Origin: Aerococcus viridans | Lineage (GTDB): Bacteria > Bacillota > Bacilli > Lactobacillales > Aerococcaceae | Direction of reading: 5' to 3' | DNA: 64,000 nt | Assembly: GCF_002871935.1 (NCBI RefSeq) | Contig: NZ_PNHQ01000001.1 | Coordinates: 114,771 to 178,770, forward strand | Shown here: piece by piece, positions 25,765-63,550 of the stretch | Position numbering within the stretch: the stretch's first letter is position 1 | Layout of the letters: each line of letters starts with the position of its first letter | Program-made: the position numbers and the translations under genes | Notes under the pieces: model-generated | Told to the model about the DNA's origin: nothing | The model's database searches: none | What the model saw: only the letters and a program-made list of their open reading frames with translations

Positions 25765-27303
<1,539 letters not shown>

Positions 27304-27364: not shown

Positions 27365-27387
27365 CAAAAAAAGCAAGCAAGCCTTGC
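27365..27387 (-). terminator. Weak terminator after the ArsR-type gene
   Basis: On the minus strand GCAAG and CTTGC form a 5-bp stem with a 5-nt loop followed by T7. It lies between the ArsR-like gene and lysS. The short stem makes it weak. Confidence 0.5.
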
Positions 27388-27505: not shown

Positions 27506-27859
27506 TTATCCTTCCATTCCTGAATCGTCTTCTTTTATATGAGTAAAGGCATCTGTTAATATTTGTAGCACATGACTATCTGCTTGGCTATAAATGACCG
27601 TATTTCTTTCTTTGCGTTTTTTTACCAAGCGTAAATCAAATAGTTTCTTTAATTGATGAGAAACCGCAGACTGTTCCAACCCTAATGCTTCTGAAATTTT
27701 AGTGGCCATCATTTCTCCAGTACCCAATAAATATAAAATGCGTAATCTTGTTGGATCGCCCAAAGCTTTAAACATTTTACTTAGATGTTGAATTTGTTCA
27801 GGTGCAACCGGCTCTTCAAGTGCTTGTTGGTTCTCAAAATATTTTTCTGCTTCCTTCAT
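27506..27859 (-). CDS. ArsR/SmtB-family regulator of CzrA type
   Basis: 117-residue winged-helix repressor. The recognition helix region ATKISEALGLEQSAVSHQLK is typical. The C-terminal helix carries D94-x-H96-x10-H107-x2-E110, the spacing of the alpha-5 zinc site of CzrA/SmtB (D-H-H-H/E). No N-terminal CxC is present, so cadmium/lead sensing of the CadC type is unlikely. It lies 35 nt after the degenerate cysK-like gene on the same strand and no metal transporter is adjacent, which is unusual for this family. The protein begins MKEAEKYFENQQ. Confidence 0.87.
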   Translation of the reverse strand: MKEAEKYFENQQALEEPVAPEQIQHLSKMFKALGDPTRLRILYLLGTGEMMATKISEALGLEQSAVSHQLKKLFDLRLVKKRKERNTVIYSQADSHVLQILTDAFTHIKEDDSGMEG

Positions 27860-27894: not shown

Positions 27895-28827
27895 TTAATT
27901 ATTTTTCACGTTGAAGTTGAAGTTACCTTCAGCCACAAATCTTCTACCGTCATCAGGTATGACAGCAACTACTTTTTTATTTTGACCTAGGGTTTTAGCC
28001 ACTGCTATGGCTGCCGCAACAGCTGCTCCCCCCGCTGGTCCTACCAGCAAACCTTCATTGATCGCTAATAAACGACTCGTTTCTTTGGCTTTCGCTAGGT
28101 CAATGGCTACAATATTGTCATATAGCGTAGTATCTAAATTTAAGGGTAGTAAACCTGGATTAAACCCTGTAGTAGCACTTGGTTTAGCCACTTCTCCCGA
28201 CAGGAATTTAGCTGACTTATCCTCAACCGCATATAATTGAATATCTTTGTTTTCTTGTCTGAGAGCATTACCAATCCCGGTCATTGTCCCACCAGTTGCA
28301 ATTGTTGTAATGAATGCATCTGGTGCACCATTTAACGCCTCAACAATTTCAGGTCCTGTTGTTTTCTCATGGACTATAGCATTTGAATCATCGTCATATA
28401 CATCCATAAATAAGTGGTTTCCTGCTTCAGCATAAGCTCGAGCTTGTGGCATGGCCTTTACAACACCTTGACCGCCAGCTACCAATTGTACTTGTGCGCC
28501 ATAGGCCTGCAAGACTGTCAAGTCATGCTGTGATGTGGAATCTGGCACAAAAGCTTTAACATCATACCCTTTGCTGGCACCTATCAAAGCGAAAGAAGCT
28601 GCAACTTCAGCTGTGGTGGCAACCACAATTTGTTGGCCAGCATGTAAGCGACCTTCATTTTCTGCTACTTCAATCATATTTAAGGCAATACGATCATAGA
28701 TTGAGCCAGTTGGGTTAGCTGTTTCGAGTTTCACGTATACCTGTGCGGCTTTATATGGTACTGATCGTTGTAATTTTACTAGAGGTGTTTCTCCAATTAA
28801 TTGACTCATATCATTTGTAACTTCCAT
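27895..28827 (-). CDS. Cysteine synthase-like protein lacking the PLP lysine
   Basis: 310-residue fold-type II homologue of O-acetylserine sulfhydrylase. The frame opens IGETPLVKLQRSV and keeps NP-GS and ATGGTMTGIG. The catalytic residue is gone: the family NPGGSVKDR is NPTGSIYDR here, with Tyr44 (codon TAT) in place of the PLP lysine. The substrate loop TSGNTG is TTAEVA (71-76), and the serine near the PLP ring (GISSGAA) is GPAGGAA. The frame is otherwise intact over its whole length, so it is not an ordinary pseudogene. It is probably a non-catalytic paralogue (inference). It lies between hslO and the ArsR gene. Confidence 0.85.
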   Translation of the reverse strand: MEVTNDMSQLIGETPLVKLQRSVPYKAAQVYVKLETANPTGSIYDRIALNMIEVAENEGRLHAGQQIVVATTAEVAASFALIGASKGYDVKAFVPDSTSQHDLTVLQAYGAQVQLVAGGQGVVKAMPQARAYAEAGNHLFMDVYDDDSNAIVHEKTTGPEIVEALNGAPDAFITTIATGGTMTGIGNALRQENKDIQLYAVEDKSAKFLSGEVAKPSATTGFNPGLLPLNLDTTLYDNIVAIDLAKAKETSRLLAINEGLLVGPAGGAAVAAAIAVAKTLGQNKKVVAVIPDDGRRFVAEGNFNFNVKNN

Positions 28828-28903: not shown

Positions 28904-29779
28904 TCAAGCTTGGCCTTCAATCACTCTTAAGTCTTCAGCCGTGAATTGATAGCGTTTATTACAAAATTGGCAAACCACTTCTGCACCACCATCTTCTTCA
29001 ATCATCGCTGTAATCTCTTCTTTAGCTAAGGTAGCTAAACCGGCTGCAAAACGGTCTTTATTGCAATCACAGTAGAATTGAACGTCACGTTCATCCAAGA
29101 ATTTAACATTTTCTTCACCTAATAAACGATTGATCATATCTTTAGCTGTTAAGCCGTCTGATAATAGTTCTGTAACTTGTGGTGTTTCAGCCACTGCTTT
29201 TTCAACTGCCTCAATCGATGGTTCAGTTACGCCTGGCATCAATTGAATCATCCACCCACCAGCATTTATAACTGTCTCATCTGTATCTACTAAGACACCC
29301 AAGCCAACAGCTGATGGTGTTTGTTCAGAATAGGCTAGATAGTAAGTAAAGTCTTCTGCAATTTCACCAGAGACGATTGGTACTTGACCTGAGAAAGGCT
29401 CTTTTAAACCTAAGTCTTTTGTTACGGTAAAAAGTCCTTCCGTCCCAACGGCTTTGCGTACATCAATTTTTCCTTGGTCATTTGGTTCTAAGCTAATGTG
29501 TGGCTGTTGAATATAGCCTTTCACTTTTCCTTGTCCATTCGCAACTGCCATCAATTTACCAGCTGGGCCATGCCCATTAATTTGCACAGTGATTTTGGCG
29601 TCATCTTTTATATCTGACCCCATCATCAATGTCCCTACTAAGGTACGTCCCAGTGCTGCCGTTGAAGCAGACCAAGTATCGTGTTTCTCTTGTGCTTCTT
29701 GGACAACACCTGTAGCATCTACCGCTGTGATACGTACTTCACCATCAAAGGCCACTGCCTTAATTAATTTATCTGTCAT
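28904..29779 (-). CDS. hslO: Redox-activated chaperone Hsp33
   Basis: 291-residue holdase switched on by oxidation. The C-terminal zinc centre has the family C-x-C (FYCDCNKDRF) and C-x2-C (VCQFCNKRY) pairs. The N-terminal domain with FSGQVPIVSGEIAEDF is complete. It lies downstream of the ftsH terminator and upstream of the cysK-like gene on the same strand, the usual hslO-cysK neighbourhood of Lactobacillales. Confidence 0.97.
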   Translation of the reverse strand: MTDKLIKAVAFDGEVRITAVDATGVVQEAQEKHDTWSASTAALGRTLVGTLMMGSDIKDDAKITVQINGHGPAGKLMAVANGQGKVKGYIQQPHISLEPNDQGKIDVRKAVGTEGLFTVTKDLGLKEPFSGQVPIVSGEIAEDFTYYLAYSEQTPSAVGLGVLVDTDETVINAGGWMIQLMPGVTEPSIEAVEKAVAETPQVTELLSDGLTAKDMINRLLGEENVKFLDERDVQFYCDCNKDRFAAGLATLAKEEITAMIEEDGGAEVVCQFCNKRYQFTAEDLRVIEGQA

Positions 29780-29842: not shown

Positions 29843-29870
29843 ATTCTAACCTAATTTACTGAACAGTGAA
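29843..29870 (-). promoter_or_regulatory. Candidate promoter of hslO
   Basis: TTCACT (29865-29870), 16 nt, TAGAAT (29843-29848) on the minus strand, about 65 nt before the hslO start. The ftsH terminator just upstream means hslO needs its own promoter. Confidence 0.45.
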
Positions 29871-29907
29871 AATATATTCATTTAAAAAAGTAAACCGTAT
29901 AAGGTTT

Positions 29908-63479: not shown

Positions 63480-63550
63480 ATCGAGTAGGAGGAAGCTTTC
63501 GATTCCGACCTCTCACACCACCGTGCGTACGGTTCCGTACACGGCGGTTC
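63480..63550 (-). ncRNA. 3' end of a group II intron (domains V and VI)
   Basis: On the minus strand, domain V is about 63515-63550: CCGCCGTG and CACGGTGG arms around a UACG-GAAC-CGUA hairpin (GAAC tetraloop). Domain VI follows (about 63481-63514) with a GGAA/UUCC stem. The intron probably ends at about 63479-63481 after CTACTCGA(T). The maturase stop codon overlaps the start of domain V, which is usual. The 5' part lies beyond the window. Confidence 0.8.

What the first reader, a model, noticed from the sequence alone, without database searches (positions are those of the whole stretch)
27895..28827. CysK paralogue without the PLP lysine, beside a zinc-type ArsR gene and Hsp33
The gene is a full-length, intact cysteine-synthase fold, but the PLP lysine is Tyr44 (codon TAT, two changes from any Lys codon), the TSGNTG loop is TTAEVA, and the PLP-contact serine of GISSGAA is replaced (GPAGGAA). 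Several independent losses in an intact frame point to selection for a non-catalytic protein. Known precedent for CysK-type moonlighting includes the CysK-CymR complex in Bacillus and activation of contact-dependent toxins by CysK in E. coli. That this one does something similar is inference. Its neighbours (Hsp33, zinc-type ArsR) hint at redox or metal stress.
Basis: partly seen in the sequence, partly recalled or inferred. Interest (0 to 1): 0.75.

Follow-up and report, generated by a model that had tools for sequence, protein, structure and literature searches.

The report
Cysteine synthase turned non-catalytic, kept
In one group of Aerococcus bacteria the ordinary cysteine-making gene has lost its catalytic parts while another copy does that job, yet the disabled protein is still conserved and sits beside a metal-sensing regulator, so it has probably been reused for something other than catalysis.

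Summary
Window 27895-28827 (-) encodes an intact 310-aa CysK-fold protein with Tyr44 for the PLP lysine, TTAEVA for TSGNTG and GPAGGA for GISSGA. All 15 database clusters that cover the site (70-93% identical) have the Tyr. Selection is purifying: dN/dS 0.05-0.19 in the 11 of 15 genome pairs where it is defined.

It is not a stray paralogue but the housekeeping cysK in its own slot, ftsH-hslO-cysK-lysS. In sister Aerococcus the same slot holds a catalytic CysK. All 8 genus genomes whose slot copy lost catalytic motifs have a second cysK with intact motifs overlapping cysE. Other Aerococcus lost different residues (K to R), so catalysis was probably lost more than once.

A zinc-type arsR follows the gene only in the Tyr44 clade (window and 5 of 5 relatives; 0 of 6 other Aerococcus slot cysKs); that is one inherited event. 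Hsp33 adjacency is ancestral. The CymR and CdiA precedents fit poorly: the cleft their tails enter is rebuilt, and 0 of 15 genomes reach the CymR cut-off. Best reading: a displaced CysK kept as a non-catalytic binding protein; ArsR is the likeliest but unproven partner.

The parts
27895..28827 (-). non-catalytic CysK-fold protein, 310 aa
28696..28698 (-). codon TAT, Tyr44 at the PLP lysine
28600..28617 (-). residues 71-76 TTAEVA in place of TSGNTG (substrate loop)
28285..28299 (-). residues 177-181 ATGGT in place of GTGGT (phosphate cup, largely kept)
   Evidence: role recalled
28024..28041 (-). residues 263-268 GPAGGA in place of GISSGA
27506..27859 (-). arsR, SmtB-like, 117 aa, D94-x-H96 and H107-x-x-E110, no cysteine; starts 35 nt after the cysK stop
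28904..29779 (-). hslO (Hsp33), ancestral upstream neighbour
25765..27300 (-). lysS, ancestral downstream flank of the slot
   Evidence: name recalled from sequence
29843..29870 (-). promoter-like site before hslO (TTCACT-16-TAGAAT)
   Evidence: the region as a whole holds 13 such sites against 8.9 in shuffles, so weak
27373..27387 (-). terminator-like hairpin with a T run after arsR
   Evidence: consensus match only

Best explanation
The gene is the ancestral housekeeping cysK of the hslO-lysS slot, turned into a pseudoenzyme in place. In genomes of this clade a second cysK with intact motifs, overlapping cysE, presumably makes the cysteine, so the slot copy was free to lose PLP chemistry. 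It was not discarded: the CysK fold, the phosphate cup and part of the rebuilt cleft have stayed under purifying selection. The most likely mechanism is a non-catalytic, CysK-like protein that works by binding a partner or a small ligand. The likeliest partner is the SmtB-like ArsR encoded 35-49 nt downstream, with the CysK fold as its co-regulator or ligand-sensing subunit. Shown: the losses, synteny, selection, the second cysK-cysE in relatives, the arsR linkage. Inferred: displacement as the cause (about 0.8), a binding role (about 0.6), ArsR as the partner (about 0.3).
For: Tyr44 in 15 of 15 clusters. 17 of 30 changed, formerly conserved positions are invariant in 21 Tyr-type rows (57%, against 42% of the 206 less conserved positions and 79% of the 73 kept ones). 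dN/dS 0.05-0.19 in 11 of 15 pairs, the other 4 saturated; all six frames intact. Well-folded model, pLDDT 92.5, 1.5 A over 304 residues to S. aureus CysK. Same slot catalytic in G003, G010 and G013. Second cysK with intact motifs in 8 of 8 genomes with a motif-losing slot copy, its end overlapping the cysE frame; G003 and G010, with a catalytic slot copy, show no other match. arsR next to the gene in the window and 5 of 5 relatives, and in 0 of 6 other Aerococcus slots.
Against: The arsR linkage is a single clade, hence one event. No conserved operator, no interaction or expression data. The slot gene is undetected in 46 of 74 family genomes that have hslO and split into two ORFs in 2, so it is dispensable in the family. 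It evolves faster than catalytic slot copies relative to hslO (1.3-1.7 against 0.4-0.6 in Aerococcus). G013 has a catalytic slot copy and also another cysK-like gene, of another kind.
Confidence: 0.55

Rival explanations
1. A dying gene: catalysis became redundant and the copy is drifting toward loss, still intact by chance or because of its place in an operon.
For: Undetected in 46 and split in 2 of 74 family genomes with hslO; faster than catalytic slot copies; the Arg-type pair evolves at 4.5 times the hslO distance.
Against: dN/dS 0.05-0.19 over six intact frames; dN/dS 0.07 for the Arg-type pair; same replaced residues fixed across 70-93% identity; confident fold.
Confidence: 0.18
2. A ligand-binding protein unrelated to ArsR: the kept phosphate cup holds PLP without a Schiff base, or another phosphate compound, as a carrier or sensor.
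For: T178-G179-G180-T181 kept, and new cleft residues Tyr44, Val143, Tyr144 and Asp146 invariant in the clade. Lysine-to-alanine mutants of this fold have been solved with bound aldimine or substrate (titles of 1d6s and 3x44).
Against: The asparagine loop and the serine of GISSGA are lost too; a glycine-rich loop may be kept for folding alone.
Confidence: 0.12
3. A decoy or regulator of cysteine synthesis that binds CysE or the second CysK.
For: Homology to CysK, and CysE tails that end in Ile in the 7 of 8 motif-losing genomes where the tail was read.
Against: The loop and Q-F motif of the tail-binding cleft are replaced, and a motif-intact CysK is encoded overlapping cysE.
Confidence: 0.1
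4. Still a PLP enzyme, using another lysine or other chemistry.
For: CysK fold and phosphate cup kept.
Against: Four lysines are invariant in the clade: K33 and K86, which catalytic CysK has too, and K26 and K246, at positions variable in catalytic CysK; none is new at the site by motif position. Coordinates of the model could not be inspected.
Confidence: 0.04

Closest known systems
Cysteine synthase A, CysK (TIGR01139; S. aureus CysK, PDB 8t2c, 8srt)
   Different: PLP lysine, asparagine loop and GISSGA serine lost; under the family cut-off
CYSL-1 of C. elegans
   Same: A CysK homologue described as having lost biosynthetic activity and acting by protein contact (PMC5562914, passages)
   Different: CYSL-1 is said to keep its bisulfide site and bind the C-terminal Ile of EGL-9; here the cleft is rebuilt and the neighbouring ArsR does not end in Ile
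CymR-CysK repressor complex of Bacillus and Staphylococcus
   Same: A CysK fold paired with a transcription regulator would be the same idea
   Different: Catalytic CysK with an Rrf2 regulator there (PMC11487621, section 10; Rrf2 recalled); here a non-catalytic fold beside an ArsR, and no CymR at cut-off in 15 genomes
Slot CysK of the A. sanguinicola group (P0121-P0123)
   Same: Same slot in G004 and G005, lysine lost, confident fold (pLDDT 90.9), second cysK-cysE present
   Different: K to R and DDGYFG instead of K to Y and TTAEVA; dus instead of arsR downstream

Membership tests
CysK cysteine synthase (enzyme) | Fold-type II PALP/CysK fold | tested here: met
   PF00291 203.5 bits against 35; fold
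CysK cysteine synthase (enzyme) | PLP-binding lysine | tested here: not met
   Tyr44
CysK cysteine synthase (enzyme) | TSGNTG substrate loop | tested here: not met
   TTAEVA
CysK cysteine synthase (enzyme) | Score over the curated cysK cut-off | tested here: not met
   255.2 against 350.95 bits
CysK cysteine synthase (enzyme) | O-acetylserine sulfhydrylase activity | not testable with these tools
   needs purified protein
CymR-CysK repressor pair | A CymR in the genome | tested here: not met
   0 of 15 genus genomes over the cut-off, 3 weak hits of 54-55 bits against 195; over the cut-off in 1 of 14 control genomes. The window's genome is not held
CYSL-1-like or tail-in-cleft CysK partner | Intact cleft that takes a C-terminal Ile | tested here: not met
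   S72T, G73A, N74E, T75V, G76A, Q143V, F144Y by sequence; binding itself not tested
SmtB/CzrA-type zinc sensor (neighbouring ArsR) | Helix-5 site D-x-H plus H-x-x-E/H | tested here: met
   D94, H96, H107, E110 aligned with SmtB and invariant in 7 rows; ligand role recalled
SmtB/CzrA-type zinc sensor (neighbouring ArsR) | Zinc binding and derepression | not testable with these tools
   needs protein and DNA
Decaying pseudogene | Broken frames or dN/dS near 1 | tested here: not met
   six intact frames, dN/dS 0.05-0.19 in 11 of 15 pairs, 4 saturated

The most novel reading that the evidence does not exclude
A PLP-free CysK fold has become the ligand-sensing co-regulator of a zinc-type ArsR repressor: a two-protein metal and sulfur-metabolite switch built in place from a housekeeping enzyme after a second cysK-cysE pair took over cysteine synthesis. 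The same slot lost catalysis separately in other Aerococcus, which makes it a repeated natural experiment in turning one enzyme into a non-enzyme.
Probability: 0.22. Interest if true: 0.75.

Novelty: new variant of a known kind. Interest (0 to 1): 0.5.

Why it matters
CysK is a well-known moonlighting enzyme, but the partners named here enter the working active site. A bacterial CysK that has lost the catalytic lysine and the cleft motifs and is still conserved must owe its upkeep to something other than catalysis. Aerococcus species show the same slot catalytic, with Tyr, with Arg, otherwise eroded, and empty, together with presence or absence of a second cysK-cysE, so the order of displacement and loss can be tested. 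The literature searches (seen as listings) showed no paper on a bacterial CysK pseudoenzyme of this kind by title or abstract start; the library lacks most subscription papers. Two clusters bear the source name 'PLP-dependent cysteine synthase family protein' [Aerococcus viridans], which would mislead.

Tried and rejected
Error or chance: rejected, 15 clusters and 5 genomes agree. PLP on another lysine: no new lysine at the site by motif position; model coordinates could not be inspected. RNA feature under the gene: the one Rfam match in the window lies elsewhere. ArsR operator: the only two TGAA-N6-TTCA sites in 64 kb (motif recalled) both fall in this operon, but two is what chance gives (2.66 expected) and none of 5 relatives has an exact site in the operon. 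CymR partner: Rrf2 proteins over cut-off in 5 of 15 genus genomes, not in G014, which has the Tyr-type gene; of the two tested, one gives no CymR match and the other 55.2 bits against 195. Hsp33 link: ancestral synteny. One origin of all Aerococcus losses: the gene tree joins them (98/94, long-branch warning), but holding the Tyr clade with its catalytic sisters, as in the four-gene tree, is not rejected (p-AU 0.19 and 0.22); the number of losses stays open, though the different replacements favour more than one. ArsR as a copy of the czrA type: three other genus copies were read; two lie beside a CDF-like gene, one does not. Paper searches without use: (one found none). Foldseek and VIA-align rows say nothing about function.

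Full report
What is there. The window is from an Aerococcus close to A. viridans: the one locus found in genome contigs is Aerococcus sp. UBA6277 (88% identical protein), and clusters P0003 and P0006 (88%) are named A. viridans. The ORF 27895-28827 (-) is intact, 310 residues. Order on the - strand: tilS-hpt-ftsH-hslO-cysK-arsR-lysS-rpsL-rpsG-fusA (hslO, cysK and arsR were run against families, the other names are recalled from sequence).

Catalytic losses. Tyr44 (TAT, 28696-28698) stands at the PLP lysine, TTAEVA at TSGNTG, GPAGGA at GISSGA. Of 120 listed homologues 15 have Tyr, 104 Lys, 1 lacks the region. Over 203 proteins from two searches: 184 Lys, 15 Tyr, 3 Arg, 1 without the region. Of 103 positions at least 98% conserved in 111 catalytic rows, 73 are kept and 30 changed in 21 Tyr-type rows; 17 of the 30 are invariant there. 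T178-G179-G180-T181 are kept as the majority. One genome (G012) has TTAKVA.

Selection. Nei-Gojobori dN/dS over the window and five genomes: slot cysK 0.05-0.19 in 11 of 15 pairs, the other 4 saturated; hslO 0.02-0.12; arsR 0.02-0.38; tilS 0.10-0.25 where defined. Six catalytic pairs in the slot give 0.03-0.13. Relative to hslO distance, three Tyr-clade pairs evolve at 1.3-1.7, three catalytic Aerococcus pairs at 0.4-0.6, a catalytic pair outside Aerococcus at 0.9, the Arg-type pair at 4.5. The Tyr-type protein is less constrained than the enzyme but far from free.

The slot. hslO was found in 74 of 76 family genomes. In the four-gene tree (FastTree, supports not read) the Tyr clade is sister to G003 and G010, then G013, all catalytic, and the Arg-type and G011 copies lie in another branch. 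In the order, 135 of 158 genomes match a catalytic slot CysK; the 30 loci fetched, the best matches and so biased toward catalytic copies (two are G013 and G069, counted above), keep Lys and TSGNTG in 30 of 30, 18 with hslO in the fetched stretch. The CysK gene tree joins the motif-losing Aerococcus copies (98/94) with a long-branch warning; the species arrangement is not rejected (p-AU 0.19 and 0.22).

Displacement. All 8 Aerococcus genomes with a motif-losing slot copy have another cysK with Lys, TSGNTG and GTGGT, its end overlapping the cysE frame. G003 and G010, with a catalytic slot copy, show one match only; G013 has a further copy with GTSGT. G002, G008 and G009 lack the slot gene and have one cysK beside or overlapping cysE; G007 has no match. 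Displacement by the cysK-cysE pair is the natural reading but rests on two clades.

ArsR. The neighbour, 117 aa, is SmtB-like with D94-x-H96 and H107-x-x-E110 and no cysteine. The slot arsR (86-88% identical) occurs in the 5 Tyr-type genomes; the other ten hits in the genus are 30-49% identical. Of three read, two lie beside a CDF-like gene and one does not. In G006, the most divergent relative, arsR is 91% identical over 98 residues, the cysK 71%, hslO 78%. A gap of 35-49 nt without an inverted repeat of 7 or more (start of arsR in G006 assumed) and a terminator-like hairpin after arsR fit co-transcription, which is not shown. No conserved operator.

Precedents. CysE, CdiA-CT and EGL-9 use C-terminal tails in the CysK cleft (PMC5562914, passages); B. 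subtilis CymR is modelled likewise (PMC11487621, section 10); S. aureus CysK has been solved with a CymR peptide (title). Here the cleft is rebuilt and CymR is absent at cut-off in 15 genomes; CysE tails end in Ile in 7 of 8 motif-losing genomes (one not read), where an intact CysK overlaps cysE. Another mode of binding would be needed.

Verdict. A displaced, non-catalytic, conserved CysK: well supported. A joint role with ArsR: plausible, resting on one evolutionary event. It works like a pseudoenzyme; as an enzyme it fails the tests for cysteine synthase membership.

Noticed in passing
63480-63549 (-): Group II intron domain, RF00029, 49.8 bits.
   Followed up: no
27918-27931 and 29867-29880: The only two exact TGAA-N6-TTCA palindromes in the window both fall in hslO-cysK-arsR; no exact site in the operon of 5 relatives.
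   Followed up: yes
L042:7268-8164, L044:7071-7979, L045:6789-7676: The same slot CysK lost other catalytic motifs in other Aerococcus: K to R with DDGYFG (G004, G005), and Lys kept but loop and phosphate cup lost (G011).
   Followed up: partly
L057, L060, L062, L064, L067: In a Jeotgalibaca-like clade the slot CysK has a TDGN loop in three genomes and is split into two ORFs in two.
   Followed up: no
L038: lysS and fusA of G006 each match in two overlapping pieces, perhaps assembly errors.
   Followed up: no
L036 (G012): TTAKVA: a lysine at position 74 in one Tyr-type genome.
   Followed up: no
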